Shown here in pieces: positions 24,991-50,379 of a stretch of 64,000 bases of DNA. Location of the stretch: positions 2,604,001-2,668,000 of the forward strand of contig NC_063021.1 of the NCBI RefSeq assembly GCF_020509005.1. The letters run 5' to 3'. The position numbers and the translations under genes were made by a program. This stretch comes from Fulvia fulva. Taxonomy: Eukaryota > Ascomycota > Dothideomycetes > Mycosphaerellales > Mycosphaerellaceae. Within the stretch, counting starts at the first letter, position 1, and each line of letters begins with the position of its first letter. The notes beneath the pieces are model-generated. The model did no database searches. It saw nothing but the letters and a program-made list of their open reading frames with translations, and was not told the origin of the DNA.

Positions 24991-27960
24991 CTCCGGGCTA
25001 ACCTCTCGAAACGAGGCTATACGGTAGTACTAGATAAGTAGGAAAGCGCGGTTAAGACTTATTACCTTATCTCGTAGCTAGCTTACTAAATACGATTCCT
25101 TCCTTACTAAACGACGCTAGGGGTAAAGGCGATAGAGGAGCTAGTAAACGAACTACGCCGTAACTAGAAGAAGGTACGCTAGGACGATATAAGAGGCTTC
25201 CTAATAGCGAACCTACTATAGTATAGAGAACTCGAGACGACAGCTCAGCTAGATCAAGTAGCGGAATAGATTACCTCGGTTATATAGTAAGTAGCGGAAG
25301 ATTACACGCCGTTACTCCGGCCCTTAACGTAGTAGAAGGCCTTCTAGACCCCTAAATGCTCTACGAAGGTAAGGGAGGCTAGAAGGGCAAGGCGACAGTA
25401 GACGAAGGAGTATACCTAAGAGACGTAGGAGTAATACTGTCGCGCGACATAAGAGAAGAAGGCATAGATAAGACGCGATAAGCTATAGGACTAGAGAGCG
25501 ACGATCGGGCTCGTTATAGAAAACCCGGAATAGATATAGAGACTTGCTAAATAGGCACGACTACCTAAAGAGTAACAAACCCCTTACTTCCCCCTAATCG
25601 TAGACCGCGAAGGGATTGCCTAGGCTACGCCCCGGGGCAAGGCAAAAGTATTAGCCGACTATTTCTTTTCGACGTAAGTAGAGGTAGACCTTACGGATAT
25701 CGACCCGAGTATATACCCGGAACCCCTAGATATAGATTAGGCGGTTAGCTCTAACATAGTAATAGGAGTTATAAGTAAGCTAAAAGGACGAAAAGCCCTA
25801 GGCCTAGATAGGATACTAAACGTACTGCTAAAAGAGTATAGAGAAGAGATTACGCCGAGCCTTATAAACCTATTTACCGCGTACCTACGGCTAGGGTATT
25901 ACCCGAAGCCGTATAGAGAGTCTATAACAGTAGTGCTACGTAAGCTATAGAAGGAAGACTATACTTAGCCTAAGTCGTATAGACTAATAGCACTTCTAAA
26001 CACGATAGGGAAGGTCCTAGAAAAGATAGTAGCCTAGAGACTTACGTAGCTTACCGAGGACAACTACGTACTCCTAGTAATACAGATAGGGGGAAGAAGC
26101 TCGCGATCGATACTAACAGTAATAGAGCTAATTACGGAGTAAATTCAGACCCTCTAGCACTACGGTAGGAACCGAGCGGCGTCCTTACTATCCCTCGACA
26201 TCGTAGGGGCCTTCGATAACGTCTTATACTAAAGGCTTATATATATCCTATAGTAGAAAGGCATCCCCTAGTAGGTAACGACGTTCGTCGACTCCTTTCT
26301 CTAGGAACGGACGACATACCTAGTCCTAGGAAGGTATACGTCCGACCCGGTAAAGGTAGAGACTAGAATACCTTAGGGATCTACTCTCTCCCCTATCCTG
26401 TTTCTAATATTTATGTCGGATCTAATCCCCCTACTCACCTCTCCGTAAACCTTAGTATTAGGGTCCGTAGACGATATAAACATCCTAGCCTAGTCAGACT
26501 CGACAGAAGAGAACTATCGCCTCCTTAAAGATAGGTATAAGAAATACGAGGAGTAGGCAAAGAAGTATAGTGCCCGGTTTGCCCCTAAAAAGTACTAACT
26601 TATATACTTTAGTAAAGCGAGAACATACTATAATATAAAGGCGGCGGTAAGAATCTAAGGCTACGAGACCAAGCTATTAGCGGAGCTACGAGTACTAGGG
26701 ATCTAGCTCGACCCGAAGCTAAGCTAGAATGTATAGATTAAGAAAGCCTAGAGTCGAGCGTAAGTTAACAAAGCCTCGATAAAGAGGCTTACGGTATCTA
26801 TATAGGGAGTAACATTCGATAAGGTAAGAGTAATATATAAGGCGATCGTTAGACTAGCTATATTATACGGGGCATAGATTTAGGGAATAGGAGGCGTAGG
26901 CAAGCCGATCCCGAAACGGATAGAGTAACCCCTAAACAGGATATAGGTAGGCAACCTATATAGGGTACTAGGCGTATATAAGATAACGTTAATAAGCACG
27001 GTAGAAATAGAGATAGGAATACTACTAATTAGCCAGTATATCCGGGGAATAAGAATTTAATACGCGGTAAAGACGACAGGTTACCTAGCACAAACTACGA
27101 TCTAGGAGGCAAAGAATAAGATAGAAAGCCGCTACCGGAGAGGGGTAGGACATAGGACAAGCCAAAAAGAGGATGACCTTACTACCTTTACGGCCGTATA
27201 GGCAAGTACCGAATAGTTAGTACGAAAAGAGGAGGAGCGTAGGACTCGCTAGGCCGGCGGGAGCAAGGCTAAGACCTAAAGTCTAGCGGAATAGATAGCG
27301 AGCTACCTATAGAAGTAGGACTAGAAAAGGAAGCCCCCTAGGACAATAGGCCCGATAGTACTCCAAGCCTTCTAGAGATATAATTACTAGCTATATAGGG
27401 ACCTAATAAGGGCCGAAGCAAGTATAGCGATCCAAATTAGGTCCAAATATATTAGATTAAGGGCCTACCTATTTAGGAGACGCGTACTAGATATCTAAAG
27501 CCTAGCCTACTAGTATAGCTACCTATCGTAAAACCTAGAATATATACTACTACGATGCCCGTAGTAGGCGATTAGTAGGGGAAATTGGAGGCACTAAGCG
27601 GGAAGGAGAGACTATAAGTTAATTATTAGAGATAAAGGTAACATTCGCCGAATCTCTCGGTAGATACTATAGTAGGGATACCTCTAGTAGTTTAGCCTCG
27701 CTAGCGAGACGGAGGAGTAGATAGATAAGAGGCGGAAGCTAGGGTAGTTATAGATAGGGTAGTTATTAGGGCAGGCCTATAATACTAGCGTACCCTTAAT
27801 AAGAGAAGTCTAAGACAATAACGAGGGGAAAAAGATAGGCGGGAAGGAGGAGGGGTTTTTACTAATACGGGTTCCCCTCTATATATACGAAAATAAGATA
27901 GTATAGCTATATAGGCCAAAGGGCACTATAATAGCTTAATGAAATATCTATCTATCTATA
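24991..27960 (+). mobile_element. LINE family H, copy H1 (RIP-mutated ORF2 and 3' UTR)
   Basis: Plus-strand relic of a Tad1/I-type LINE ORF2. It holds the endonuclease end near 25050, a linker, the RT from about 25780 (KALGLD, YRLIALLNTIGKVLEKI, LSLDIVGAFDNV), FVDD-type box as SVDDINILA near 26465-26490, and the C-terminal zinc region near 27500-27560. The 3' UTR hairpin is at about 27850-27880 and the (TATC)n tail ends at 27960. Many Trp and Gln codons are TAG. Left flank (Copia B) and right flank (gypsy E) do not share a TSD. Bases from 27092 belong to the tract repeated at 52159. Confidence 0.8.
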
Positions 27961-29262
27961 TACTACTACATCGACATGTTTGTCTCCGCTAATCTAGATT
28001 CGCCTACGATCCTTAGCCGCCCTTAGTATAGGAAGGTACGACTAATAGGCCGTAACTACGACGAGAGATTATAGGAGGGAACAATCGCTAGTAGGAAAGG
28101 TAAAAGTATAATATTTACGGCTATTATAGGTACTAACAAGTACAAAACTCTTCAAGAACTTCTATAGTCCTCGAAAAAAGCGAACGCGGGTTGATTTACG
28201 GTAGTTAACCCGCTATAAGTATTAGAAGTCCGGTTTTAAAACAAGTCCGCTTTTCGAGTCTAGTCGGAGAGACCTTAGTAAATATATTAGGGGCGGAGTA
28301 TTCTAATAGTACGGCGTATTAATATCGATAAGAAGGTATAACGAAGCTAAACCTAAAGCCTATAGACACGACTATCTTCGACTACTTTAAGAACTACCGC
28401 GGCCCCGTATTATAATAAAGAGAAAATCTCCTCGACCTTAGCCCGTATTCGAAGAAATTACTAGAACTACTCGGGAACCGCTAATACTTAAGCGCTAAGG
28501 TGACTACTAACGCTCTAGGAGAGTAGGTTATTATAAATATATACTCCGTATAGGACGACTAGTGTACTAATATCCTAAAATAGGGCCAGATTGATAGGTA
28601 GGCTTAGGAACGAGACGTAGGGTTATATAGACCCGGTATTAGGATACCGTATATATTTACTATATATAAGCGAAAAGCTAACAAGAAAAGACCTATTAAT
28701 AGATAGATAGATAGATTTGTCATTCCCCTGTTCTAGGACCCTATCCGGCCTATATAGGTATATATCTATCGTTATATACAAAGGGAAACCCGAATAGGTG
28801 AAAACCCTTCCCGCCCCTAACTTCTCCTTATCTAGATTAGCTTTCCCTCTAAACGTACGTAGTCTATGTCACTACCCCGTTAGCCCCCGCTCCTAGCCGG
28901 TCTCGTCGCGCTACGTCGTGTCCTCTCTTCCTACACTACTCCTACTAGGCGGTACTGTTCTAGCTAGCCCTTCTCTAGTATCTAGTTCGTAATACGCCGT
29001 AGGTCCTTAGCGTTGTTAAAAAGTGCCCTAATCGTCCGGTTCCTCGCCTTTACTATCCACTCCCCCCTTCCTAGCGACCACCTCGGATAGACGAGGAGTA
29101 CGTGCCGTACGTTCTAGGAGCGATAGCCGTAGGGGCAGCTAGTATTCGTGTATCCTAGAACCTTCCTCTATAATAGGTACCCCTAGAGGCCGATGTGTTC
29201 GCTTCGTAGTTAGGTTGCTATGCTACTCTATGCCCTCGTAAGGCGGTAGTAGATAAGCTTTA
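27092..29262 (+). repeat. Near-identical tract, copy 1 (partner 52159-54329)
   Basis: The tract spans the end of LINE H1, 740 bp of gypsy E and most of LINE F3, and matches 52159-54329 at a constant offset of 25,067 with no indel seen. I found about six differences, all CpA/TpG to TpA transitions. Outside the tract the same LINEs differ far more. This copy sits in its original setting, because F3 has a TSD on both sides. Confidence 0.85.
27961..28700 (+). pseudogene. Gypsy element E, upstream part of pol
   Basis: RIP-mutated sequence between LINE H1 and LINE F3. It lies directly upstream of the RT of gypsy E, which resumes at 29361, so it should be the gag/protease side of that polyprotein, but I recognise no motif in it. 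An almost identical copy lies at 53031-53767. Confidence 0.5.
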
Positions 29263-29346
29263 GGGGGTGCTTGACCGCGGATTTTGTAGCTAACTATTCC
29301 TTAGGTTGTCCCGCTAGCTAAGGGCGTCTACTATACCCTATAACCT
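28701..29346 (-). mobile_element. LINE F3, 5'-truncated insertion in gypsy E
   Basis: 646 bp of family F: (GATA)n tail at 28701-28716, 3' UTR hairpin and the last part of ORF2. It is flanked by a perfect 14-bp TSD AAAGACCTATTAAT at 28687-28700 and 29347-29360. It is a typical truncated product of target-primed reverse transcription, later RIP-mutated. Confidence 0.92.
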
Positions 29347-29360
29347 AAAGACCTATTAAT

Positions 29361-31211
29361 ACGAGCGTTTACGAGAGGCCTTAGTCGAAAGTAGATAGTG
29401 ATATAGAAATCGAAGCGGAAGGCTGTTTACTAGGAATCTCTAATACTAGTAGGGTAAGGCCCGTTCGATAGGAGGTATCTTATTAAAAAGTTCTCTAGTA
29501 TTGAGCGCGGCTCGAGGATTATACCTAAAAGGCTCGCTAGTATTAAGGTTAGGATCGCTCTCTCGGCTAAGGAAAGATAGATATTTAATAAAATGCTCTT
29601 TAACCGAGAGGGTGTCCTAGTGTAGGATTTTAGCTATATACGGTAGATTAGATATAATATTATACCTCCTTAGAAGATTATAACGATTACGTACAAACCG
29701 TAGTAGGCGCGGAATATTCGGTTATACGTAAGCTTACGAGCGCGTATAGAATAGATAATCCGCGCTCGAATTAAGAATAGAATTCTTAAGTATAGTTAAG
29801 GTGCTTATATAAATGCTTAGTTCTTAGTAGCGAAGAAGGTCGAGCTAAATAGCGACGCTATACTATATAGGTTGATTAAATCCGCTATACTCTTAAAAGA
29901 GGTAACGATAAGGGATACAAATATTCCCCTAGACACGGACGGGTTCTTGTAAGACTTTACTAGGTATAGAGTAGCCTCTTTAGTAGACTTGTTTTTAGGG
30001 TACGACTAGATCACGCTTAACGAATGTAGCCGAGATTTTAAGGGCCTTTATAACGCCTCTTAGGCTTATACGGTATATAAAGTTACTATAGGGTATAACG
30101 AACTTAGTTACTTAGTTCGTACGGGTAGTAACTAAGGTGTTAATAGACTATATTTCTTACCGAGCAAAACTATTTCTTAACGATATCGGCGTAAAAGGTC
30201 CTACTAAGGATTATAGTAACGCTAAGGTAGAGCCTAGCCTTCGACGATAGGTCGTAGAATATATTATATCCCTTAATCTTATTCTTACGGACCTAGAGAG
30301 GGCCGGAGCGGTAGTCGTAGGGGAGAAGTCGTAGTGGCTTTATAAGACCCTAAAGATTGTAGGCTATATTACTAGCCCGAGCGGCCGCTATCTAGATCCT
30401 AAGGTAGTGGCTAAGATCTTAAACTAGCTAACCCTAAAGTACGTAAAGGACGTTCGAGTTTATATTAGGATCTATATTTACTTCCGGATTTAGATCCCCT
30501 AGTTCGTAATCGTAGCTCGGCTAATGTATAAGCTTTTAAGGAAGGACGTCGAGTTTGTCTAGACTAAGAATAAGTAGTTCTCGAAACAGAATCTAGTAAG
30601 GTTCTTAGTAATAACACCGGCGTTAGTAACTATCTCCTACGCCCTAGGAGCTAGTAGGATCTTCGTTTCTATTAACGCGAGTAGTATTAGGTAGGGTTAT
30701 ATAATATCGTAGGAATTACTAGATAATACTCGACGAAGATACCCGTTAAGGTATAAGAGCGGCACCTAGAACGTAAACGAGGCTAAGTATAATATAGGAA
30801 AGCGGGAGTGCCTCGGAGTACTAAAGTGCCTTAAGAAGGTGTAGCGCTACCTCGTAGGGGTAGACTTTATCCTCGAAGTTAATACTAAAACGCTAGTATA
30901 GTAGTTAAATCGGCTAGTATCTAACATTCTAAACTCTATAATAGTAAGTTAGGTTACTTAGATCCGGCTGTTTACCTTTAAAGTAAGGTATATTAATAGG
31001 AAGAAGTACTCTAGACTAGATATACTGTCTCGTAAACTACCTATAGCAAAGGAGCTTACGGAACCTAACGATAATATTAATAAGATAATTAACGACAAAT
31101 TCTTCCGTTACGCCGAGCTAGTTAATACTTTCCCTATTATTCTAGAGCGAGAACGACTCCTCGAACCCTAGTATAGTAATAATTCCGAGCTTATAGCTTA
31201 TATTCTAGAAT
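29361..31211 (+). pseudogene. Gypsy element E pol relic: RT and RNase H
   Basis: Plus-strand translation shows RT blocks RDTNIPPDTDGF and SLVDLFLGYDQI (about 29920-30010), the catalytic box region FLNDIGVKG near 30150-30200, the thumb and connection (KIVGYITSPSGRYLDPKVVAKIL near 30350-30420), RNase H (KYNIGKRECLGVLKCLKKV near 30785-30845) and LSRKLP near 31030. This is a gypsy lineage distinct from the intact element. It is interrupted at 31211 by element D and continues at 50380. RIP stops occur throughout. Confidence 0.8.
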
Positions 31212-31406
31212 TAATACGGACAAGGTGTAAGATAGGGCGTAAACGTATTAATACCTTAGAATCGAATAAGTTCTACGAAGAAGAGAAGATAAGAAAGTCG
31301 CGAAGCCGCGATAAAGTAAACGTCGAGGTTAGGGTCTAGGGTCCGGGCGCGCTAGCGTACTAGGTTACGTAATACTAAGTATATTCTTATAAGGTGAATC
31401 GTAATA
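31212..31406 (-). repeat. 3' LTR of element D
   Basis: 195 bp, almost identical to 50180-50374. The termini TAATACGG...CGTAATA are RIP forms of TG...CA. A purine-rich tract in minus orientation (31407-31418) adjoins it. Confidence 0.88.
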
Positions 31407-31705
31407 CTACCCCCCTCTTAAACCGCCGTACGCCCTCGTATACGGAAACATATCGCCGTAGGGTATACCCGTAAGGAAGAACCGTACTATTAGGAAGCGC
31501 TAGCTTACGTCGGGTTAACCGTAGAGAGACTATATATCTTACCGTAGTAAGCCTTAAGTCGAGAGTCTATATTATACCGTAGTATACCTTAGATAACCTA
31601 ACTATATATTAAGCCTTAGCTTACCTTAAGTTATATCTATATTACGCGGGTATCGTAGGGTCGACTATCGGTAGCGATATCTAGGTCGTCTAATATCTAA
31701 CCTTT
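31407..31705 (-). other. Element D internal region, 3' part
   Basis: 299 bp between the polypurine tract of D and the gypsy C target site. No open frame and no motif that I recognise. Confidence 0.6.
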
Positions 31706-31710
31706 AGGCT

Positions 31711-31894
31711 TATAAGGGCGCGCGTATTATAGGGTCTAAATAAGAGAGTTGTTATTCTACGAAGCTACGAAAGAGGAGCGCGAGGCGCGGCGAAGTTAAG
31801 AAGTAAAGCTAAGCCGCGCTAACCCGATACGGAAGGTCCGCGGTTTACCCGGGCCGACGTAGCTATAGTAACGGGTCGCGGGCTACCCGTAATA
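31711..31894 (-). repeat. 3' LTR of gypsy C
   Basis: 184 bp, homologous to the LTRs of the intact gypsy, with CpA/TpG to TpA changes that differ from those in its partner at 49178-49361. Confidence 0.92.
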
Positions 31895-34696
31895 GTACCC
31901 CCCCTCTAAAAACGCGTCTTAGTCCTCTAAGCGTTATCTATCTTATACGGCCACTTGCCCGTACTACTCTATAACCGTACGAAAGTCTAATTATTCTCTA
32001 ATGCCTTATTATTATCTAGTAATACATCTATATCCTGTCTATCTATAACTAGCCTATCCGCGACCGGCTCCTTTCGAGAAATATACTACCTAGTTAGCTA
32101 GCTTACCCTAGACCTAAGTCTATCTTCGGCTAGTACTTACGTATAATTATTATAGCCTAGGTTAGGTATTATTATAGGCTCTATAGGTTTTACTTAAGTA
32201 TCGGTATAACTACCGGTACTATCGTAGAGCTAAGGGTAGTAGGTAATACCGGAGTCCTTAGTTAAGATAGTAGGCTTTTCCGTAACCTAGCTAGTATAGC
32301 AGTACGTAGTAAATATATACTAAGTAGATTCTATTAGAGGTATAGCTCGAGACAACTTATTCGTAACGGTGTTACTATTAACCCTAATCGTATTAAGCCC
32401 GAGCACCTTATTACTTAGGAGGACCTAATTAGATAGAGCTACGAAGCCTATAGGCGTAGACAACTCCGGCCGGTTATAGTGAAAATCTATAATAGCGGCG
32501 GCCGCGTATTTAAACATATTCTTAGCCGGTCACTAGGTCTTACTATCCTCCTTATTCTAATATCTAAGCCATTTTACCTTAGACTAAGTGTCTACTTTAC
32601 GCTTCTACCCCTTCTTTACTTTACCTACTCGCTTACGGGTATATATATCTTAGATCTTCTCTACCTTATATATATATATATATAGGTATTACGACTATAA
32701 TAGCGACTATATTAGCTTCGGTAGTATCGGGCTCGATAGTTATCGGCGGTAGTAGTACTAGATACTAGCCTTCGAGTAGTAGGAAATCGGGATGATCGGC
32801 TCGCTAAAGTAACGAGGTATAAAAGTAGTTATCGAGTCCTACTATAGCGTCCGATAATCTCAGTTTATATAAGAGCTTAGCTAGTATAACTTCTATAATC
32901 TAGTACGGGCTAGCGTATCTTCTATCGAGCTTCTTAGATAGTCGAGTCGTATAGATGTTCTTAGTACTTAGGTATACCTAGTCGCCTACTTTATAGTCTA
33001 GCGGGATACTTCGGTAGCTGTTTACTACTTTAGCTTAGAGAGCTTATAACATCCGTATATTTTCTTAAAGGTACTTATAAAGGTCGCAAATTCGGCGTTC
33101 GAAGGCTTTAGCCGATCGCGTATCTAGTCGCTAGAGAGTAGTTAGTCCTCCCTCTTTTCTAGCGCTTAGGTCTACGCGCTCTATAAACTTAGGGTTATAG
33201 CCTAAAGTAGCGTAGAATAGCGACATACTAGTAGTCTTAGAAAGGTAGTTATTAATCGCGAACTAAGCTAGACAAAGCTATTCTACCTAGTTATCTTATG
33301 CCTCGTTAGTAAATATACGGAGATACTGTTCTATTACTTAGTTAGTACGTTCCGACTATCTATTAGTTTCTAGATAGTATAAAGAACTTAGCTTACGACT
33401 TGTACGAAGTATCTTATAAAGTTTCTTCTAGAAGGTAGTAACCTATTACTTGCCGCGGTCTAAAGTAATAGTATTAGGAAATCCGCGTCGGAAGAAGATA
33501 TACTTAAGGAAAAGTCTTACCGTATTCTATATAGTTATCGCTCCGATCGGAATGAGCTCGACTTCCTTCGTTAGCCTATCTATTACGGTTATAATGTTGT
33601 TATAGGTTATACTATCGAGGGTGCTATTAGGAAGTTCGACTACAAAGTCTACCGCGATATACCTCTAAGGTCGGTCCTATACTAAAAGTAGGTATAATAA
33701 TCTAGGTAGCTAGGAGTATAGAGATTTCCTCGTACGGTATATACGGTAATTCGCGGTATCTCTACGTACTAATCTTACTAAGCCAGGCTAATAGAATTCT
33801 CGTACTACGAGTTTATAGGTTCGAGCTCGTCCTAGATATCCTACTACTAGAGCGTTATGATTTATTCTAATAAGCCGAGTCCGTAGGGCCTCGTTATCGG
33901 GTACCTATAGGCTCTAACTATCGTACTAGTTTCGTATATACAATATATCACTATCTACATTATAGTACGTAGGGTGTATCTTCGCCTTCTATAAGAGTAG
34001 AGGAATAGTACTATCTTTCCGTAATATCTTAATTACTACCTTAAGTTCTTAGTCTAGGGCGTAAGTAGTCGTTATATAGTACTCGAGTTTAGCTTCGACT
34101 TCGGCTTTATTCGTAGTCTATACTTTCTAAGCTAGTACTAGTTATATTTGAAGTACCTGTTCTAGTTCTAGCGTGAACTTAGTTGCTTTAGGATTTAGGG
34201 GAGTCGTCTCTTCTTCTTCGGGCGTATCTTCGATAGTAGCTCGTATAGAGTCGATCTTAAGGAATCGCTCTAGCGGAAGTAATGTCTAATACTAGTACTG
34301 ATTTCTCGGATCGTCCACCCCCTACGGAAGGTCCTAGCTACGTCTCCTTAGGCTGTCTAGCTTCGTTCCTTATATACCTAGGCGGTATATAATCTAGAAG
34401 TTAAATTGTAATAGAAATTCTGCCTATCGCGCTTATCGGCGATTTAGCTACTTCGTAGTCATAAAATATTCGAGGTTCTTATAGTCTATAAACACTTTGA
34501 CTAGATCGCCGTCCTCGTCTACTTCGCTAGTAAGCTCCGGGCGCTACTCTTCGAATGCTTTAATAATCGCGAGGAGTTCCTTATCGTAGATCTCGTAATT
34601 ATACTCCTAGGGGCTCAGCTTCTTCGAATAGAAAGCTATAGAATGTAACACTCCCTACTCGTCGTATTATAAGAGCACACCTATATTAATAAAGTC
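31895..34696 (-). pseudogene. Gypsy C pol relic, C-terminal part (RNase H end, integrase, chromodomain)
   Basis: Colinear with about 14965-17620 of the intact pol, with dense RIP stops. It carries an extra segment of about 108 bp (32204-32311) in the region after the chromodomain that the intact copy lacks. LINE I interrupts it at 34696 in the RNase H region. A 68-codon ORF at 32479-32685 is a chance frame. Confidence 0.9.
34681..34696. repeat. Left TSD of LINE I
   Basis: CTATATTAATAAAGTC, repeated at 39565-39580. Both copies carry the RIP-mutated form of the gypsy sequence (compare 17612-17630 in the intact copy). The first bases overlap the tail repeat, so the true TSD may be slightly shorter. 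Confidence 0.9.
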
Positions 34697-34727
34697 AGGG
34701 ACTATATATCGACTACGAGGTGACACG

Positions 34728-35987
34728 ATGATAGCGATCGCAGGAAACGACCAGGAGCAGGAGAGTAACGAGTGGAAGGAGGTCTGCAGGAAGGCAGAAA
34801 CAATGGCAATGGCAGGAGATGGCGAGCACCCAGAAAGAGCACTTAAGGGGATGATTTTGGAGCTCCTTGGAGGGCTAAAGGCACTAAGGAGCCAAACAGG
34901 ACAGATCATTAACAGGACAGTAGCAGCAGCAGCAAAGAAGAGGACACAGGAAGGCCAGAAACTAAGCCAACCAACCTGGGCAGCAGTTGCATCCCAAAAC
35001 CCTCCCCCCCAGAAAACAGCTATCAAGGTCTACATTTCCGACCAGCAAGAGCAGAAAGAGATCGAGGGCCTGTCAGGCAAGGAGATCATACAGAAGATTG
35101 GGATACAAGGCATCATTGGAGCCAGGAAAGAGAAGGGAGGTGTCCTTAAGCTGTTCACAGCACAGGAGCAAGACAGGAAGAGGCTAGAGACACAGAAGGA
35201 GTGGACAGTCAAACTAGGCAAGACGGCTAAGGTCTCACACCAACAAAATATGGTTATTGCCCATGGGATGACCACAAAGTTTGACATTGAAGGAGACCTT
35301 AAGAGGCTGCAGGACCAGAACCAGGCTGTATGCCCAGGGCTACAGATCACAAAAGCAGCATGGGTCAACAGAAAGACAAAGGACACAAAGAGAGAGTCTT
35401 CTCTAGTGCTCTGGATAGGCACTGTAGAACAGGCAAACACCGTGCTTGACAAGGGCATCTTCTGGGAATGCGAAAGAATGGACACAGAAATCCATAGAAG
35501 CGCCCACAGACTACTGCAATGCTTCAAGTGCCAACAGTATGGTCATATCTCTACTAGATGCCCAAGCCAAAAGGACACTTGTTCCCACTGTGCTGGTAGC
35601 CACAAAGTACAGAATTGCACAGCCCCAAAGAGTGAAGCCAGATGTGCATGCTGTGGAAAGAAACACCCTTCCTGGTCCCAAGACTGCACAGCTAGGATTG
35701 AGGCAAAGAGGAGGGCAAGAGAAGCCAGGATCAACACCCCTATCAGATTCCAGACAGGGACAATCACCCAAGAACCCCTAAGGACTGTCTACAACCCTCT
35801 GAAAAGAGGCAGAACAGAAGAGACCACACAGGCCCAAGGCCACCCTGCTATGGGTAGACCAAAATCAATTGTGGTTGCAGGAAGAGACCCGTCACAAAGC
35901 AGGCTCAACCTTACCACAATCCCAAATAGCAGCCAGCAGCAGGAAGCACGAGAAGACCAGCAGGAGACCAGCATGGATGAGTCATGA
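34728..35987 (+). CDS. LINE I ORF1: gag-like RNA-binding protein with three zinc knuckles
   Basis: 419 residues. The N-terminal half is charged and helical, rich in Gln, Lys and Glu. The middle (about 95-260) resembles the RNA-binding domain region of Tad1/I-type ORF1 proteins by position. Three Cys/His knuckles lie at residues 265-320: CX2CX4HX4C (CFKCQQYGHISTRC), CX2CX3HX4C (CSHCAGSHKVQNC) and CX2CX3HX6C (CACCGKKH). Family knowledge: ORF1p coats LINE RNA in the ribonucleoprotein. The first ATG lies 31 bp after the insertion point; the second in-frame start is some way on, so the N-terminus may be shortened. Its TGA overlaps the ORF2 ATG by 4 bases. Reverse-strand ORFs here are shadows. Confidence 0.9.
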   Translation: MIAIAGNDQEQESNEWKEVCRKAETMAMAGDGEHPERALKGMILELLGGLKALRSQTGQIINRTVAAAAKKRTQEGQKLSQPTWAAVASQNPPPQKTAIKVYISDQQEQKEIEGLSGKEIIQKIGIQGIIGARKEKGGVLKLFTAQEQDRKRLETQKEWTVKLGKTAKVSHQQNMVIAHGMTTKFDIEGDLKRLQDQNQAVCPGLQITKAAWVNRKTKDTKRESSLVLWIGTVEQANTVLDKGIFWECERMDTEIHRSAHRLLQCFKCQQYGHISTRCPSQKDTCSHCAGSHKVQNCTAPKSEARCACCGKKHPSWSQDCTARIEAKRRAREARINTPIRFQTGTITQEPLRTVYNPLKRGRTEETTQAQGHPAMGRPKSIVVAGRDPSQSRLNLTTIPNSSQQQEAREDQQETSMDES

Positions 35988-38900
35988 TTGAGACACCTAA
36001 TCTTACCACTATCCAGTACAATGTCAACAAAAGCCAGCACAAGGTCCAGAGAAGCTTTCTCCAAGCACTGGACCCAAAGAAACACCTAGTCATTGCAGTC
36101 CAGGAACCTTGGATCAACAGCAAATCTAACAGACCATCTACTGCTAACGACCCAAGGTATCACACACTCCTAGCCAAACAAGGCACCCCTAGAACATGCA
36201 TGTACATCAGCAAAGAGATGGCAACAGACAGCTGGGAACAAATCCAACAGGAAGGGGGAGACATCACCTCAGTCAGACTCAACACCAACCAAGGCAGCAT
36301 CCACATCCACAGTGTATACAACCCACCCCCCAGCTCCAGAAGCAGCACCCAGCTGGGCACACTACAACAGCTGCCAGACATCCTGCAGAGTGACTCCCAA
36401 CACATCGTGCTGGGAGACTTCAACTTGCACCATCCTACATAGGGATCAGACTTTGCACCTGCCCATCACTTCCTAGCTAACAGACTCCTCTCCACTACCC
36501 AAAGCAACAACATGCACCTAGTTACCCCAAAGGGCCTAACTACCTGGTCACAGAGAGCAAGCTCAAGCACCATTGACCTGTGCTTTGCATCACATGACCT
36601 GCAGCAGAAGGTCACCAGATGCTGGGTTAACCAGGACTTGGAGTCCTCATCAGATCACCTCCCAATTCAGGTGGAGTTTGAAACACAGACACAGCAGGAA
36701 GGAGACCTAGAACCTCAGCTGGCCTGGAAGGCAGCCAACTGGGAACAGATCAGACAAGACCTGGAACAGAAGCTAGCTGGACTAGAGACCAGGAGACTGG
36801 AAACAGCCTTAGACATAGACCAAGCAGTGGCAGAACTGGTTAGAACAATGCAGGAAACTGCGGCAGCCCACACCAGAGAAAAGAAACAGTCACTGTACCA
36901 GAAGCCATTCTGGACAAAGGAATGCTCAGAGAAGGTCAAGGCAGCCAGGCAGGCCAGGAGAGCCCTTACCCAGAGCCACTCCCAGGAAGCATGGGACAGA
37001 TACAACCAGGCAACCAGAGACAAGAAGGCCCAGATCAAGAGGGACAAGATGCTGGAGTGGAGGTCAACAGTTGGATCCATTACCCAGAATCCTGAGAAGA
37101 TGTGGAAACTAGCAAAGTGGGCAAGACAACCCACACAGGACAGAAACATGCTGCCCCAGTTTCCAAACATTGAAGACCAGGAAGGAGTAATCCAACACAC
37201 TCTCCCAGGAAAGGCACAGGCATTGGGGAAACATTTCTTTGGCACACAGGTAGAAGCTGACCTGCAGGATCTGGAGGGCAGTGTGTATCCAACACCGCTA
37301 GAGCAATCCTGCACAGTGGGAGAGGGAGAGATCAAGAGCATCATTAAGACACTCTCAGGAAACAAGGCCCCAGGACCAGATGGGATTCCAAACTTGTTCA
37401 TCAAGACATGCAAGGACCAGATCTCCCCTGCACTGTCAAACATCTTTTCACAGTGCATGGCCCAAGGACACTGCCCTAAACACTTCAAGGAGTCACTGAC
37501 TGTGGTCTTGAGAAAACCACAGAAAGAGGACTACACAAAGCTAAAGGCATACAGACCTATTGCCTTGCTCAACACACTAGGCAAACTCCTGGAAAAGATC
37601 ATAGCAGAAAGGCTGACAAACCTAGCTGAAGAACATGGAATCCTTCCTGAAGAACAGATGGGAGGCAGGAAACAAAGATCAACACTAACAGCTGTGGAAC
37701 TTATCACAGAGCAGATCAGGACCCTGTGGCACTTTGGGAACAACAAAGCAGCCACACTCCTCTCACTGGACATATCAGGAGCCTTTGACAATGTCTCACA
37801 CCAGAGGCTGATCCACATCCTAAAACAGAAGGCTATCCCTAACTGGACAGTCCAGTTCATCCAGTCGTTCCTCAAAGGCAGAACCACAAGACTAAGACTG
37901 GGCAGATACAAATCTGACAGCATGCCTACAGAGACAGGAATCCCACAGGGATCAACAATGTCTCTAATCCTGTTTCTCCTCTTTATGGCAGACCTGCCAG
38001 CAAAGCTAAACTCCAGAAACACATCAGCCTCAGGGTTTGTGGATGACACAAACATCCTAGCCTGGTCAGACAGCACAGAAGAGAACTGCAGAATCTTGCA
38101 GAAGAAACACAAGGAATGTGAGGAATGGGCCAGGAAACATGGAGCCAGATTTGCCCCAGAGAAGTATCAACTCATCCACTTCAGTAGAGCCAGAAACAGA
38201 CACAATATGCAAGCCCCAATCACTATTCAGGGACACACAACAGAACCCTCTAGTGAATTAAGGGTGCTAGGAATATGGATGGATCCAAAGCTTAGCTGGG
38301 GACCACAGGTCAAGAAAGCACAGGCAAGAGCAGACAACAACAGGCAATCAATTGACAGGCTTACAGCCTCCACATGGGGAGCCACATTTGCGAAAGCAAA
38401 GGTTATGTACAAGGCCATTGTGAAGCCAGCCATGCTATATGGAGCCCAGATCTGGTCAGCCCAAGACAAGATCCCAAAGAGAATTGCAGATCCCATCAGC
38501 AGAGCCCAAGCCTCCTGTCTGAAAAAGGTGCTTGGAGCATACAAGTCAACTCCAACAAGGGTGGTCGAAATGGAGTCTGGCTCCCCACCAGCCAAGCTCT
38601 ACCTTCAAGGGTTGAGATACCAGTATGCAGGAAAGACGTCTGCATACCCAGCCCAGCTAGTAATCCAGAAGGCAGTCAACAAAATCAGGAGCCAGTGCAC
38701 AAGAAGGCACAGACAAGCAAGACCCAATCCAGCCCCACAGAAGCAGCAGGACCTGCAGAAGTTCAAAGAGCTAACAGAACAGCTGCACCTAGCCCAGCAG
38801 GAACAGGACAGAAGGGCTCAAGGGAGAGGATCAGCAGCCAGCCAAGGGAAGAGGCAACAGTCTCTAGCTGAAAGGATGGCAGGACTCCTCTGGAAGACTG

Positions 38901-39370
38901 AATGGACAAGAACCCCACAGAGGCCAGGAACCCCAAAGGCACTCCAACAGTTTGGTAGCCACAACTACCTACTGTACTCAGACCTAACCAGGTCAGAAGC
39001 AAGCATAGCAATACAAATCCGCTCTGAACACATCGGAGTCAGGGCATACCTGCATCAGAGAAAAGTCCCAGGTATCGAAGACAAGAGTTGCCCATGCGGC
39101 TACCTGTCCCAGAATGTCGAACATAGACTTCTGGTTTGCAAAGAATGGAGTACAGGGAGAGGTGAATGGAGGGCAAGGGCAAGGAACAGAAACTTCCAAG
39201 CCATGATTAGCAATAAGGGAGACCTCCAGAGAATTACAAGGTGGATCATCCACCAAGGATTTTTGGAGCAGTTCTCTCTTACTAGGGAAACAGAGAGATG
39301 GATTGAGGAGAGAAAGAAGGAGGAGGAGAGCAGGAAGAGGGGGACAACTCCAGGGTTGCAGACAAGGTAG
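35984..39370 (+). pseudogene. LINE I ORF2: endonuclease and reverse transcriptase, one in-frame stop
   Basis: 1,128 residues if read through one TAG at 36440-36442. The N-terminal EEP endonuclease has QEPW, VYNPPP, GDFNLHHP, then the stop, then TIDL and SSDHLP. The RT has PGPDGIPN, YRPIALLNTLGKLLEKI, LSLDISGAFDNV, GIPQGS and catalytic FVDD at 38036-38047. The C-terminus has a CXCX8HX4C zinc motif (CPCGYLSQNVEH, near 39090-39140) and no RNase H. The stop replaces the Trp that normally follows GDFNLHHP-type motifs; TGG to TAG is a CpA to TpA change on the other strand, the RIP context. From 36512 a 952-codon frame with RT but only part of the endonuclease stays open. Start ATG overlaps the ORF1 stop (ATGA). 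Confidence 0.93.
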
Positions 39371-39564
39371 TCAGAGGCTAACCACCATGACACTAGTGCA
39401 CCCTAATGGAAGGAAAACTGAGAACTCATGGCAAGGAAGCTATTAGAGAAGGAGAGGAGGTTTTTACCTAGGAATAGGTTTCCTACCTTATGCAGTAACA
39501 TATATAGACATAAACCCGCATGGGCCGGAGGGCACCACAACGGGTAAATGAATCATCTATCTAT
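39371..39564 (+). other. LINE I 3' UTR with hairpin and (TATC)n tail
   Basis: It holds a potential hairpin at about 39455-39487 (AGGAGG pairing with CCTACCT through a one-base bulge, loop beginning TTTTTACC and ending GGTTT), a GGCCGGAGGGCAC block and the tetranucleotide tail. The same layout is found in families F and H, so it is probably the site recognised by the LINE RT. Confidence 0.65.
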
Positions 39565-39580
39565 CTATATTAATAAAGTC
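39565..39580. repeat. Right TSD of LINE I
   Basis: Identical to 34681-34696. Confidence 0.9.
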
Positions 39581-41520
39581 TAAGGAGTTAGTCTCGACGA
39601 CGGTCTACCTACCCGGTATATAGTATACTAGTATACCCGCCTTACTAAACGCTACTTTTAACGCCTCGAATACCCTCTAGCAATTATTAGTCTAGTTGAT
39701 TCTACGGTACTTATAATTACTAGGCCTATCTAACTTCGTTAGGTTAGTCAATAGGGATGTAATACGAGAGAAGGTCTCGATAGACCTACGGTAGAAGTTC
39801 GCGAATCCTAGGAAGGCTTAGACATCCTTAAGATTAGTTAGTGCTTCCTAGGTCTATATACATTCCAATTTCTCCGGGTCTATCTCGATGCCCTAGGGTG
39901 TAATAACAAGGCCTAGATATTTTATACGTTCCTAGTAGAACTCGGACTTATCGATATTAATAGTAAGCCCGGTATCTCGTAGCTTAATTAATACCTTTTG
40001 TACGTGTTCGACGTGTTCCTCTAGAGTGTCGCTAAAGATCAGAACGTTATCTAGATATACTAATATAAAGTTATCTAGATGTTCCTATAGAACCTTATTA
40101 ATATATAACTAAAAGGTTACGGGTCCGTTATAGAGGCCGAACGGTAATACGAGGCATTCGTATATACCGTAGCGTATTACGAAAGCTATTAGCTACTCGT
40201 ACCCTTCCGCGATACGTAACTTATTAAAGGCTACTAAAATATCTAGTTTCGTAAAGTACTTCTTTCTATATATACGGTTAAGCGTTTTCTAAATTAATAG
40301 AATAGGATAGCGATTCTTAATAGTAATAGCGTTTGGCCTACGGTAGTTAATATATACTCGTAGCCCTCCTCTAGGCTTTCTTACTACTAATACCGGTGCC
40401 GGTAACTAGCTTGTTTTCTAACTGGCCTTAGGTACCTTACCTTCTAAAGTCTATCCGAGTAACTATTTCTTAACGGCCTTATTCTCCTTCTCGGCTAGTC
40501 CGTATAGCTTTCGATATAGCGGTTCTTAAGGTCCACCGGGTTTAATATAAATCTCGTAGTCGATGCCTAGTCGGTAAGGTAGGAGTCCCTCGTAGTCCTT
40601 TACTAAGAAAGTATCTATAATGTCGTAGTATATAGGCGGGAGCTTCTCTTTAGGATTGTAGTTAAACTACTTGTTTAAGAACTGATCTAGGTTATTAGCT
40701 ACTATCGCGCTTAGTTTAAGGCTATTATCGTTATTGTTGTTATCCTCGCGCCCCGTAGGTATAATATAGAAGCACTCGGCCCTAGACCGGTACGCGTATA
40801 TCTTCTATACGCGCTACGAGACTTCCTAGTAATCCACCTCTTTGCCTACCTCTAGAGCGGACACATTTAGCTCTGCCCCTCCGGCTATAAATCCTACTAA
40901 TTCGCTAGTAAAGGGCTTTAGTCTATATTTTGTTTACTAGGTTCTACCGAGATAGTTTAGAGATTATACTATTGTCGATGTCTTATTATATAGATAGTGA
41001 CCGAAGTAGTAGTTAGATCTAAACGCTACCTCGCTAGTTTCCTAGAAGATGTTCGGGTTATACGCGGAGAGCTACGGTAGTCTAAAGACGATATTGTATT
41101 CGAGGTCGGTAACGTAGTATAGTATTTACTCGTAATAACCGCCGATAACTACGTCTATAAGGGCTATATATATAATCTGACGTACTTCAGCCGATCTATC
41201 TCCTAGTATTAATCGTCTGTTCTTCGTTAAAGGGATCAAGGGGGTTATATATTTAGGTATAAATTCTAATTAAGAAAGAGAGAGGTAGAGGTAGAGTCTA
41301 TAAGGCGGCGAGCCTTTTTATATTATATCATTACGGGTAATACTATATAAGGGTATATAGCTAGTTGTTGTTTATCTAGTATATATACCGATATCTTAAG
41401 CTCCTTACTATAGTCCGTCTCTTATATTCTATATCTCTTAATTTTAGGCTCTTTCTATCTTAGAAAGTTCGGTTACTAACCGCTATCTACTACGCTTAGG
41501 TAGCGGTCGTGCCATTTCCC
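39581..41520 (-). pseudogene. Gypsy C pol relic, N-terminal part (protease, RT)
   Basis: Colinear with about 17630-19580 of the intact pol. The RT catalytic region is legible near 40040-40080. The slippery heptamer is kept as ATTTCCC on the plus strand at 41514-41520. RIP stops occur throughout. Confidence 0.9.
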
Positions 41521-42526
41521 TATTACTATAGGTCGGTAGTAAGGGAGCTAAGGTTAGGGTTGTTTCGTAGGCGTAGAGGGCGGTAGTCGCCGTCGTAACT
41601 ATATATCGGGTATTCGGGGTTCGTTAATACGTACGAGCCTATATAGTAGCGGTAGTACTTACCCTACTTCTTAAGGTCCTCCCGCTACTTACGGTTTAAT
41701 AAAGGTAGGTTCTATAAGTAAACCGGTAGGTCCTCCTTCTTCTTCGTACCTACGTATTATAGTAGTCGCTAGACGATTATAGCGGTCGTACTAGTAGCTA
41801 CGGCGCCTACGGCATTACTACCGCCCTATACGCCGTTATTATTCGAATTAGGATTGCTACGTAGGCGCTCCTTCTATAGATATAGTCGATCGGTCTCGTA
41901 GAAGCGCTTATCTAATACCGTATATTCCTTAATAATATCCTATATATCGTATAAGCGTCTATTTGCTTCCCTATTACCGAAAGTCTTAATAAAGTACTTA
42001 CGGTTTAGGCGGTTACGAAACAGTATTAGCTTAGTCTCGTCGGTCTACTCTATCTAAGTACGTAGCTTCGAGTAGCGAGCGTAGAAGGCAATAAAGGTCT
42101 CGCCCTACTCCTACTTATAGGTAGCGATATTAACTATAGCCTTAGTTCCTTCGTTACGGGTACCGTACTAGCGCGTTATCTAATCTAGTAGTTCTTTACT
42201 AGTCTTGAACTCGTTAAATAATTGTTGTCTAGGCACGGGGATCCTCGGCTTAATACTTCTCTAAGAGTTACCCTATATCTATCTATATATAAAACGTAGG
42301 CCGTCTACCTCGGAGCGGAAAGTAGTTATAGTCAGCTTAAGAAATACGCTACTATACTAACTGTCGAAGTTAGGGTCGTTATCGTTCTTAAAGTACTTCG
42401 GGTTAGGCACGCCCTTACTAACCTCGATACCGCGTATTAGAGTACGGTTAATAGTGAATAGGCGTTCTAAAAGTTCGGTTAGGGGAGTCTATATACGGGT
42501 ATTACGCGCTCGAGAGTCGCGACCGT
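41503..42526 (-). pseudogene. Gypsy C gag relic, C-terminal part
   Basis: Homologous to about 19556-20605 of the intact gag: zinc-knuckle region near 41620-41680 and capsid-like domain near 41880-42340. Interrupted by Copia J at 42526, just before the sequence encoding the Arg/Asn-rich stretch. Confidence 0.88.
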
Positions 42527-42934
42527 TATTAATTAGTTATAGTATATATATATACGGAAGTTAGGACACGTAATAGGGAAGGAGGAAGGACTAATATAGT
42601 ATATAAAGGTATATAGTAGAACAGTATTTAGTACTAAAGGTGTCTCTACTATCGGTATAGAGACTACGTCTCTTATACCTATATAGAGGGATATTACTCT
42701 AGTCCTAGTTCTATTTTACTACGCCTTATCGGTTTTACCTTTATCTTATCCTATAACGGCAGTTCCTCCGACAGTCTCGTACTAACTAGCTAAGTAACTT
42801 TAGGTCCTCTAAGTCGCTCCTACTATTCGTACGGTATCTCGGTAGTATTACCGTACTATTGTCTCGACTAGCTTAGTATATACTAAGTTAGTCTTAGTAC
42901 CGTACGACATACCTACTAACCTATATTTGTAATA
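42527..42934 (-). repeat. 3' LTR of Copia J
   Basis: 408 bp, homologous to 47627-48034, with mostly C/T and G/A differences. Confidence 0.9.
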
Positions 42935-45900
42935 CTTCTACTTAGGTCGTAAGGTAAGGAACGATTGTTCCTACTATACTAGCTATAGCTATCGTACGAA
43001 GGTCTAGAACTAGGGACCGGCTAGCGGTTTAGTTAAATTATCTACTACTATCTCCTTAGTATAGTAGTACTCTACTTTAATCTTCCTCTACTACTAGAGG
43101 TGCCTAATATAGTTGTAGGTAACATTAATATACTTGGATCTTTCGTAGATATAGGCGTCCTTAACTAAGGTTAGAGCCGCCTAGTTATCCCCTATAAGGC
43201 GTACTAGTCTTAGTTCGTCGACGGTGCTCTTATCGGCTAGGACTGTTAGTTAGAAAGAGTAGTCTCCTACTAGCCCCGGGTAGTTTATCTCTCGGAGGAT
43301 AGCCGCTAGGAACTAGGATTGTTTCGCGGCGGCGTTTATTACTATAAACTCTACCTCTATAGTAGAGGTTACTATAGACTTTTGCTTCTTACTTATCTAG
43401 GATATAGGCGTACCGTATACTAGCTAGACATGTCCTAGAATTAAGACCCTGTCTACTCGATTTATCGCGTAGTCGGAGTCTAAGTATCTAGTTAGGGCAC
43501 TACTACTACGTCTAAATATTAACCCTAGGTCGGGGAACGACCTTAGGTATCTCGAGACCTTCTTTAGTACTTTTATCTACCGCTTTATTAGATCCGCGAC
43601 ATATATACTAGTTCTCTCGAGTAGGAAGGCTAGGTCCGGTCTCGTTATAGTCATTAGCTATATCTAGGTCCTATTATCGCTCTAGTAGTTATCCTTATTA
43701 TATCTCTTGTCGTTCGGGGCTATAGGACGGAGATTATCGTAACTATCTATTAGCGAGAGTATTAGGCTTACCTTTTCTTTTGCAATGTCTATTTTAGTAA
43801 GGGCCTTACGGATATAATAGCCCTAGTCGAGTTTTAGGGTACCGTTACGCTTATCGCGAGTAATCTTTAGTCCTAGTAGTTTCTCCGGTTCCCCGAGATC
43901 CTTAATCTTAAAGTGTTACGTAAACTACTTCTTAAACTATTAGATATCGGCTAACCTTAGTACTATAATGGGTATGTCGTCTATATAGATAAGTAGTATA
44001 ATGTCTCTCTTAGTATAAGTTAGGAGATATAGGTCTACCTCGGACTAGTAGAATTCTATTTTGACTAACGTAGCAATATAGAGCTTGTTCTAGTCTCTAG
44101 CTACCTACTTTAGGCCGTAGAGACTCCGGAGTACCTTAAGGACCGTGTTCGGTAGGGTTTCGACTCCTAGTAGGGGTTTTATATAGATGTCTTCGGCTAG
44201 GTAGCTTTAGGTAAACGTATTATTAACGTCGACCTAGTCTATCTCGAGATCCCGCTCGTAAACTACTACTATAAAGACCCTTAGGGTGTTATAGCGTACT
44301 ATAGGTACAAATGTCTCTTTAAAGTTAACGCCGAATTTCTATAAAACCCCTCTTACGACAAGTCTTGCCTTGAACCTTTCGATTACTCCGCTAATAAGTC
44401 TCTTTACGTTAAAGACCTACTTAGAGGTAACTATATTCGCCCCCCTTAGAGCAATAGCCGTTTCCTAGGTATTATTACTTAATAACAAGAGTAGCTCGGT
44501 ATCGATAGCGTCCTTCTATAAGTAGCCCTATTTAGGATCCCCTACCGTAGCCTTATATATCTTCGGGATAGGTACTTCCTATTAGTAGGCGATACCGGGT
44601 CCGAATATAGTAAAGGCGTATTCTTAGACTTCGTCGAACAGTTCCTCTACCGTAGCTATAAATATACGTTCGTCGGTATTAGTAAGTCTATTGTTCACCT
44701 ATAGTAGTTAGTAGAACAAAGCTATTATAGCTTTATAGTACTTAGCCTTATAGTCCTAGTCCTAGCCGTAGTTATCGTTAGGATCCCTTATCCTTTTCCT
44801 CCGGACGAAGAGTTCCGGTAGCTCCGGGGTTTCCTCGATCTTCTTATAGTCCGCGATATTATCTAGTCTACCGGGAAGTTAGACATAGAGCGGTTTTAAG
44901 ACAGTTAGTCCTTTGTCCTTAGCCGTAGCGGGTTCGGGCTCTACGTAGGGAGCGGGGATTAGCTAGGTCGGTTCTTCTATAGAGGACTCGGCTACTTTAG
45001 TAGTAGGAAGTTAGGGTATTATACTACCCGAGGATCGTAAGATTGCTATCGGGGCATCCGCTAGTCGCTAAACTAGTAGTAGTCGCGAGACCGCCGGTAG
45101 TCGACCGACTAGCCTTCGTTCGGGTGCCCTACTAGGTTAGTTCGTAAAGGAGATACCTAAGTCTAGATCTCGCCCCTTCTCGTTTTCGAACTAATCTACT
45201 TGGCTATACTACCTAATAGCTCGTATATCTAGCTCCTAGAACAACTATTACTTAGTCGATTAACCGTATCTAATAAAAATAGCTTCCTTACCCCGGTTTA
45301 TTAACTTATCCTATCGTAGCCCTTTTAGATATAATTTCGGTTCTACGTAAACTCCTACCCTATAGCCCTATACTCTTAGGTAATCTACCGTCGGTACTTT
45401 GCTAGTAAATGCTTCTTCCGGCGAAAGTTAGATACCGTTAAGTAACGGTCCGTTCGGTAGTAGGTTACGTATAACCGCCTATACCTCTAGCGCTTTAGGC
45501 TAGAATTCTACCGGTATCCCCGATTCCTCGAGTATTACGCGGATCGCGTTCTCCGATACCTAGATTGACCTTTCTATCACTCCGTTTTGTATAGAGTTAT
45601 AAGTATCCGTCGTATCGTATTAAACCCCCGATTCTTTCTCCTATTCTTTTAGAACTATTAGTAGCTTAGGTATATTGTTACTCCGTACTACTCTTACGTA
45701 GTATTTCGATACTTTTTCTATAGTTAGCCGCTATAGTCGTAGTACTTACGTCAGTCGGATTTGTTCTTAAGCGGGATTACCTACTTCTTTTCTAAGAAGT
45801 TATCTACGATCTCTAGCTAGTATTTAAAACCTAGCCTAGATGTCGTATTTTCGAAGGGTCCGTAGATGTCGATAGATATAAGCGTAAGTCTTTCGTTCTT

Positions 45901-47626
45901 TCGTTCTATTATAGCGCCTTTAAACTTCCGTATATTCGCGATAGAGTATACCTTATAGTTATACTCGTCCGGGATAGGAATCGGGTCCTTCTTATTACTT
46001 ACTCTATAGATGTTCCGGAGTAATCCTTTACCTAGGTATACAAATCTTCTATACTAAAGCTCCTACTAATCCTCGGTAGTTACTACGGCTAGAGCTTCCT
46101 CGTATAGCATCTCCGGGGGTCTATTATCTATCTAGTTTAGGGAGTCGGATATCGAAGATACTACCGGTACCCCCCCTCGTAGTACTATTCGTACGATAGG
46201 CTTTCCGCTCTTATACTTAAGTATAAAGTTTAGAGGTTCGATATCGAATTACTTACTAAACTGTCTCTATAAAACTAGATTAACTCCGAGATTAGGAACA
46301 AACAAGACTTTCTCTAGCGTAATTTATTTTCCCGTTAGGCCTCCTATAGTTACTATTCCTTTATAGAATATATCTAGGTACCCCCTACCGACTTTAATTA
46401 CTTTCCTTCTCGCTAGTTTCCTAAGCGATCTAAATAGGGACTTATTATCAGTTATGTATAAGGAGGTATAGGAGTCTAGTAACTATTTAGAGACGGGAAA
46501 CTTGCCTTTTACTTCGGTAGTAGAATAGGCGACTTCGTCGCCGTATATTTCCTCGGTATCGCTTTCTCGTAAGGTATAGGCTCGTATTGCCTTTACCTTT
46601 GTCTTATTATCGGATTAGCTTCTCCTATCCTTCTACTGTTTCCTAGACTTCTTAAAGGCGTTTTAGGCCTTCTCTAGATCCCGGACTAGCTCTTCGTAGG
46701 ACTTCTTCTCCGGTTACTTCTAGGTATTCTTCTTTTTAATAAACTCCTTTACGGAATCTAGTTCCGGGTACTATATAACTAGGTAGTTACTATCGTAGAT
46801 AAAGTAGCCGCTCTTACCCCCTTACCTCTAGGAGTATAGAGCGGTCTCGCCCTTACTCTCTTAGATCCGTAATTTGTAGGATTTAAGTCAGGTTATAGCG
46901 GATTCCTAGCCTAGGTTTAGCTAGGCTAGGATAGTATCCCTAGTACTAGCGTAGACGTCCGGGAGGCTACTTAGTAGGTGCTTAAACCTCCGGATAGGGT
47001 CCGTATAGTAGGTCTCTTTACTATCTGTTTCGGTAATCTATATAGATAGGTTACCTAGATATGTCTACCCTTGTCTAATTGTCTAATCGTCCGGTAGCTT
47101 AAACGATACTAGCTGTTTTATAAGCGCTACTACGTGTGTATTATAGACCCTACTATACTTCTTCTATAGAAGTTTCTAGATCTCTTTTGTATCTCGTATA
47201 TCTAAGATTTCTTAGTTATCCTCCTCGGACAAATATACTAAGATAGTATATCTCGCTATACCGTTCGCCTTCGAAGTGATCTTAGGCGTAACGGATTCTA
47301 GGAGATTAGCTAACGAGTCGTCGATAACCTAGAATACCTCCTAGCTTTCGAGATAGTCTCGTAGTATAACAAACTAGCGCTTCTAGTTCTTATAAGTAAG
47401 GGTAGGGCCGACCTTCCGGGGGCCCTCGTAACTCGTTAAGTCTTCTATAGCGAAGGTAGCCTTAGATATATAGTAAGCTCTACTTAACTACGGTGGTTAG
47501 AATAAGCTTAGACTCCCCGAGTCTATTAGTACGTTACCGTACGGATTCCGGGTATAGAGTATAATACCCTACGTCGTACTTCCTTAGTATATCGATGTCC
47601 TTTTAAGCAAACTCGGGCTTATAACC
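42935..47626 (-). pseudogene. Copia J gag-pol relic
   Basis: Minus-strand translation shows the Copia RT box LLIYIDDIP at about 43973-43997, RNase H towards 43100-43500, integrase towards about 45200-46300 and gag/zinc-finger sequence towards 46600-47500. This is the order gag, protease, integrase, RT, RNase H of Ty1/copia. Domain limits other than the RT box are inferred from position. RIP has destroyed the frame. No open frame above 60 codons remains. Confidence 0.75.
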
Positions 47627-48034: not shown

Positions 48035-48039
48035 ACCGT

Positions 48040-49177: not shown

Positions 49178-49361
49178 TATAAGGGCGCGCGTACTATAGG
49201 GTCCGAATAAGAGAGTCGTTATTCTACGAAGCTACGAAAGAGGAGCGCGAGGCGCGGCGAAGTTATAAAGTAAAGCTAAGCCGCGCTAACCTAATACGGA
49301 AGGTCCGCGGTTCACCCGGGCCGACGTAGCTATAGTAAGGGGGCGCGGGCTACCCGTAATA
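49178..49361 (-). repeat. 5' LTR of gypsy C
   Basis: 184 bp, partner of 31711-31894. Confidence 0.92.
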
Positions 49362-49366
49362 AGGCT

Positions 49367-50374: not shown

Positions 50375-50379
50375 AGAAT

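What the first reader, a model, noticed from the sequence alone, without database searches (positions are those of the whole stretch)
27092..29262. 2.2-kb near-identical tract copied between two LINE-flanked loci (27092-29262 and 52159-54329)
Seen: the two tracts match at a constant offset of 25,067 with only about six differences, all CpA/TpG to TpA, in both directions. Immediately to the left the same LINEs H1 and H2 continue at the same offset but differ at roughly 7% of positions (about 23 differences in a 330-bp stretch I compared). To the right F3 and F2 diverge again (four differences in the last 84 bp). The tract brings 740 bp of gypsy E and its F3 TSD sequence to a place downstream of the E integrase. 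Locus 1 is original because F3 has both TSDs. The best explanation is ectopic gene conversion or break-induced copying primed in dispersed LINE copies, after RIP, followed by light RIP of the few remaining sites.
Basis: partly seen in the sequence, partly recalled or inferred. Interest (0 to 1): 0.75.

Follow-up and report, generated by a model that had tools for sequence, protein, structure and literature searches.

The report
Local re-copying of mutated transposon DNA
A 2.2-kb piece of dead, mutation-riddled transposon DNA was most likely copied onto a second spot 25 kb away by homology-guided repair between old transposon copies; similar local near-copies turn up elsewhere in this genome, so the event looks real but of a known kind.

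Summary
Windows 26192-29347 and 51259-54414 align without gaps at offset 25,067. They differ at 62 of the first 900 positions, at 5 of 2,177 (27092-29268), and at 4 of the last 79. The near-identical tract runs from LINE H through a 740-bp gypsy-like fragment (E) into LINE F. Against 29 other H and 28 other E copies, the tract has 18 mutations seen only at these two loci; the left H flank has none. Both loci are halves of one E copy, split by a nested LTR element with a 5-bp target duplication. E 3720-4459 recurs, out of order, after E 7103, so copying went from locus 1 to locus 2. Best explanation: non-crossover repair with H and F as homology arms, after RIP, then light RIP. It is not unique. 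Among sampled H and E copies, 8 of 11 other pairs within 105 kb carry a near-identical tract, against 0 of 857 more distant pairs. Later samples gave 1 of 3 and 1 of 7 local pairs, so the first rate is probably inflated. The process is known; its local recurrence in RIP-mutated DNA is the interesting part.

The parts
27092..29268 (.). Donor copy of the near-identical tract (right edge between 29263 and about 29328)
   Evidence: 5 differences in 2,177 bp against 52159-54335; change-point fit
52159..54335 (.). Recipient copy of the tract
   Evidence: Same alignment; E order is broken here
26192..27091 (+). LINE H1, diverged left flank at the same offset
   Evidence: 62/900 differences to H2, 0 shared-private mutations against 29 other H copies; RVT_1 hit with X at stops
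51259..52158 (+). LINE H2 left part; blunt 5' start joined to E 7103 at CCTATATAGCTATCG
27963..28701 (+). E (gypsy-like) fragment, E positions 3720-4459 of copy L061 within 1 bp; last 15 bp are the F3 target duplication; colinear with 29347-31211
53030..53768 (+). Second copy of E 3720-4459, placed after E 7103: out of order
28702..29346 (-). LINE F3, 5'-truncated, with 15-bp target duplication AAAGACCTATTAATA on both sides (28687-28701 and 29347-29361)
   Evidence: E 4445-4459 present on both sides
53769..60542 (-). LINE F2, long copy with LINE H3 nested in it; its left flank carries F3's target sequence, its right flank does not
   Evidence: RVT_1 in 54420-55980 with X at stops
57333..59176 (+). 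LINE H3 nested in F2, target duplication ATATACTAAAGGGG (edges within a few bp)
29347..31211 (+). E 4445-6307, right of F3 (RNase H remnant)
31212..50374 (.). LTR element with 195-bp LTRs (31212-31406, 50180-50374; 96.4% identical) and 5-bp target duplication AGAAT, with nested insertions, splitting E between 6307 and 6303; its own coding parts were not identified
50375..51258 (+). E 6303-7103 with a 76-bp LINE H4 insert (about 50875-50951)

Best explanation
A break or gap at locus 2, between LINE H2 and LINE F2, was repaired by copying from locus 1. One end paired with H1 and the other with F3; synthesis crossed the 740-bp E segment and rejoined without crossover. The original DNA between H2 and F2 was replaced and so lost. 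This happened after the families had been mutated by RIP. The fresh 2.2-kb duplicate then took a few more, mostly CpA-type, mutations. Shown: the identity steps, the mutations shared only by the two loci, the direction of copying and the types of the later differences. Inferred: a break as trigger, synthesis-dependent repair, and loss of an original spacer.
For: Sharp steps at both ends within homologous LINE sequence in unchanged register. In the left flank H1 and H2 differ by 6.9%, more than the median of 435 H pairs (4.7%); in the tract they differ by 0.23%, tied third closest of 435. Tract H part: 9 shared-private, 0 private mutations; left flank: 0 shared-private, 5 and 11 private, against 29 other H copies. 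E block: 2 differences in 734 bp, 9 shared-private against 28 other copies. F part: 3 shared-private against 13 other F copies. E is colinear at locus 1 and out of order at locus 2; F3 has both target duplications at locus 1 only. Of 40 E-block hits scored (144 candidates), these two loci stand at 100% and the next best at 95%. Four of 5 later differences are CpA-type, p = 7e-5. Other local tracts with steps on both sides: L011/L013 and L009/L025.
Against: The original spacer of locus 2 was not found: right of F2 the only match to copy L062, which runs on past E 7250, is 39 bp in the wrong orientation; whether that part of L062 is still E is not known. No reads or other isolates could be examined. 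The right edge rests on 4 differences in 78 bp. The first sample overstates how common local tracts are.
Confidence: 0.78

Rival explanations
1. Break-induced or microhomology-driven template switching: a one-ended break at locus 2 invaded locus 1, copied 2.2 kb and switched back.
For: Same product. The H2 start at E 7103 is a blunt junction that could also be a switch point.
Against: Needs a second switch that lands in register in the other LINE. The H2 start also fits an ordinary 5'-truncated LINE insertion at a TATATA-type site like those of H3 and H4 (inference).
Confidence: 0.12
2. The whole 3.1-kb H-E-F block was duplicated once; RIP later hit only the outer parts.
For: The ungapped register over 3,156 bp.
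Against: H2 starts at 51259 while H1 runs further left, and F2 is a long copy with its own nested LINE while F3 is 645 bp. The left flank has no shared-private mutations, and the focal differences outside the tract include 8 transversions. RIP with such sharp inner limits is not expected (established knowledge, not tested).
Confidence: 0.03
3. Assembly or polishing artefact: reads of locus 1 were placed into locus 2.
For: Dense, similar repeats 25 kb apart; some other local pairs show 0 or 1 difference over 1.5-4.4 kb.
Against: The remaining differences are biased to CpA: 4 of 5 here, 45 of 67 over nine pairs. Polishing would not be expected to add a 740-bp E segment with two junctions.
Confidence: 0.06

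Closest known systems
Ectopic (non-allelic, interlocus) gene conversion between transposable elements such as Alu, Ty and Tf2 (PMC6598467; two passages seen)
   Same: One-way copying between dispersed homologous repeats, favoured by short distance (Alu: elevated within 10 kb, as the passage says).
   Different: Here the tract bridges a 740-bp spacer between two different LINE families, in RIP-mutated DNA; the other local pairs found lie 11-105 kb apart.
Meiotic gene conversion and RIP in Zymoseptoria tritici (PMC10294615; abstract, outline and three passages seen)
   Same: Conversion is more frequent in heterochromatin of a RIP-active fungus.
   Different: The abstract describes conversion at polymorphic markers in whole meioses; the passages seen define interlocus conversion but do not describe copying between repeat copies. 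Most of its text was not read.

Membership tests
Ectopic gene conversion | Near-identical tract with continuing, more diverged homology on both sides | tested here: met
   62/900, 5/2177, 4/79; the right flank of homology is only 79 bp long
Ectopic gene conversion | Non-reciprocal: donor unchanged, recipient altered | tested here: met
   E colinear and F3 target duplications intact only at locus 1; the pre-event recipient was not seen
Ectopic gene conversion | Event seen as a difference between related genomes | not testable with these tools
   The tool states that this genome has no relatives here
Segmental duplication | Both ends at loss of homology | tested here: not met
   The left edge lies within continuing homology; another pair, L008/L016, does fit
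RIP-mutated repeats | CpA/TpG depletion with TpA excess in repeats | tested here: met
   Tract CpA 0.24, TpG 0.20, TpA 1.87 of expectation
RIP-mutated repeats | Dependence on the sexual cycle and on the RIP enzyme | not tested
   none
LINE (H, F) | Reverse transcriptase, 5' truncation, simple-repeat tail, target duplication | tested here: met
   RVT_1 4.7e-11 (H1) and 1.1e-20 (F2) with X at stops; target duplications of F3, H3 and H4
Ty3/gypsy (E) | RT, RNase H, then integrase, with LTRs | tested here: inconclusive
   RNase H PF17917 4.6e-9 only; no RT or integrase hit in the pieces scanned; LTRs of E not located

The most novel reading that the evidence does not exclude
RIP-killed repeats in this genome are not frozen: copies within about 100 kb of each other are repeatedly overwritten by conversion, and each overwrite makes a fresh near-identical duplicate that draws a new, light round of RIP, so that RIP clocks and repeat phylogenies are locally reset.
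Probability: 0.45. Interest if true: 0.6.

Novelty: new member of a known kind. Interest (0 to 1): 0.42.

Why it matters
Age estimates from RIP divergence between repeat copies assume independent decay. Local re-copying breaks this and joins unrelated element pieces into composites that look like single insertions. It also gives substrates for asking whether RIP still recognises old, CpA-poor duplicates.

Tried and rejected
A search for the lost spacer of locus 2 in L062 gave only a 39-bp match in the wrong orientation.

Idea that all near neighbours are homogenised: no. The C10 59-kb and C2 58-kb E pairs show ordinary divergence. For F, 6 of 7 local pairs are at background (3) or outside the top 40 hits (3); this was judged over the whole 643 bp, so a short tract could be missed.

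Idea that every near-identical pair is a conversion: no. L008/L016 ends at loss of homology on both sides, and L056/L057 is uniform over the held 3.7 kb, so these may be plain duplications.

Two near-identical pairs between different contigs were seen: L006/L049 (1,002 bp, 100%) and L010/L033 (974 bp, 99.9%). They lie outside the H and E blocks scanned; L010/L033 matches window 24029-25002 at 90.6%, upstream of the H block. Both are GC-rich (0.53, 0.57) without the RIP pattern in their CpA, TpG and TpA counts, so I read them as young elements and left them out of the census. They count against a claim that all near-identity here is local.

Paper searches: ectopic, nonallelic or non-allelic gene conversion together with repeat-induced point mutation gave 0 papers each; one search gave 0; some searches gave 6, 2, 1 and 46 papers (15 of the 46 listed); two were opened in part. 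This covers the held open-licence library only.

Full report
Observation. The window lies at G000 C10:2604001-2668000 of a 67.2-Mb, 14-contig genome without a name. The two stretches align without gaps over 26192-29347 and 51259-54414. Differences: 62 in the first 900 bp, 5 in 27092-29268, 4 in 29269-29347. A three-segment fit puts the edges at 27092-27121 and 29259-29329. The sequence is depleted in CpA and TpG with TpA excess, as RIP leaves it. Four of the 5 differences within the tract are CpA/TpG to TpA; 27630 is not.

Anatomy. E copy L061 serves as ruler. Locus 1 reads E 3720-4459, F3, E 4445-6307: F3 (28702-29346) sits in E with a 15-bp duplication of E 4445-4459. Then a 195-bp repeat starts at 31212 and recurs, 96.4% identical, ending at 50374. 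E resumes at 6303, so AGAAT (E 6303-6307) is duplicated: an LTR element, 19.2 kb with nested insertions, split one E copy. E continues to 7103, carrying the 76-bp H4 insert, and meets H2 at 51259. After H2 comes E 3720-4459 again and then F2. The second E 3720-4459 is out of order, and F2's left flank bears F3's target sequence while its right flank does not. Copying therefore went from locus 1 to locus 2. That H2 was an ordinary insertion at a TATATA-type site is inferred from the H3 and H4 sites. E left of 3720 was not found left of H1, so that side is rearranged too and not explained.

Ancestry of mutations. Against 29 other H copies (28 loci plus H3 of the window), the left 900 bp has 0 mutations shared only by H1 and H2, with 5 and 11 private; the tract's 871 bp of H has 9 shared-private and 0 private. 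Against 28 distinct other E copies, E has 9 shared-private and 2 differences in 734 bp. Against 13 other F copies, 3 sites are shared-private, the last at 29262. So the tract was copied after these mutations had arisen. Judged by the other copies, 27630 changed at locus 1 and 27982 at locus 2; at 27620, 28682 and 28851 both states are found among the other copies, so direction is less certain. Each copy keeps 59 CpA/TpG sites.

Is it unusual here? I scanned all 435 pairs among 30 H copies and all 435 among 30 E copies for low-difference tracts (score above 20). These copies are the 30 loci cut out and, for E, the 28 non-window loci cut out plus the window's own two; 40 candidates were scored in each of those calls. 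H: 5 of 8 pairs within 105 kb, 0 of 46 further apart on one contig, 0 of 381 between contigs. E: 5 of 5, 0 of 28, 0 of 402. Without the focal pair, which is in both sets, this is 8 of 11 against 0 of 857. The 105-kb limit was set after seeing the data (one E pair lies at 104 kb). The copies were those scoring highest against the focal query; near-identical pairs enter such a sample together, so the rate is inflated, though the contrast with distant pairs should not be. Later samples were lower. E pairs within 105 kb picked from the table, where their scores were already in view: 1 of 3 (C7, 69 kb, identical over 1.5 kb; C10 and C2 negative). F pairs: 1 of 7 (C4, 25 kb, inverted, 1151 bits; the rest at background or outside the top 40). 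In those four F searches no non-local hit exceeded 1115 bits. Outside the scanned blocks two inter-contig near-identical pairs exist, both GC-rich and not RIP-patterned.

Of the nine pairs typed, L011/L013 and L009/L025 have steps on both sides like the focal pair; L051/L059, L033/L035 and L048/L049 show a step on one side at least; L003/L004 differ at 1 of 4,356 bp over a stretch ending at the H 3' end; L008/L016 and L056/L057 may be duplications. Within the nine tracts 45 of 67 differences are CpA-type. The p-value of 6e-41 uses 61 transitions and the focal tract's composition, so it is rough.

Mechanism. Two-ended homology-directed repair with H and F as arms accounts for both edges, the register, the direction and the absence of F2's own left target sequence. 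One-ended copying needs a second switch. Assembly error does not readily explain CpA-biased differences, but reads were not seen.

Prior work. Conversion between transposable elements is known and depends on distance (PMC6598467, two passages). Conversion is reported more frequent in heterochromatin of a RIP-active fungus (PMC10294615, abstract, outline and three passages). The searches showed no title on conversion among RIP-mutated repeat copies; most listed papers were not opened, and only open-licence papers are held.

Changes at checking: element edges of F3, F2 and the E fragment were moved by 5 bp to fit the target duplication, H3 was added to the H comparison (counts unchanged), and the inter-contig pairs were moved into the main text.

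Noticed in passing
14781-22002: LTR element with two identical 184-bp LTRs (14781-14964, 21819-22002), minus-strand stop-to-stop frames of 1,598 and 740 aa and GC 0.54, without the RIP pattern, in an otherwise RIP-mutated window; its flanking 5-mers do not match, so no target duplication is visible.
   Followed up: partly
34632-39370: Run of long plus-strand stop-to-stop frames (451, 153 and 975 aa) inside the nested LTR element; CpA 1.44, TpG 1.29, TpA 0.62 of expectation, so no RIP pattern.
   Followed up: no
L003 and L004 (C8): Two inverted LINE H copies about 10 kb apart differ at 1 of 4,356 bp although they are among the most CpA/TpG-depleted H copies; identity stops at the H 3' end.
   Followed up: partly
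L056 and L057 (C11): Direct repeat at 29,780-bp spacing, 1 difference in 3,725 bp, reaching both ends of the held stretch.
   Followed up: no
24015-27962: Other H-bearing loci join 24075-25105 directly to 25724 (L003, L004, L005, L010) or about 24015-25107 to 26182 (L006, L012, L017, L019, L022), which suggests amplified internally deleted H subfamilies.
   Followed up: no
3693-3898: A further F 5'-end fragment lies next to F1 (3966-8901), 86-89% identical to the F1 and F2 ends.
   Followed up: no
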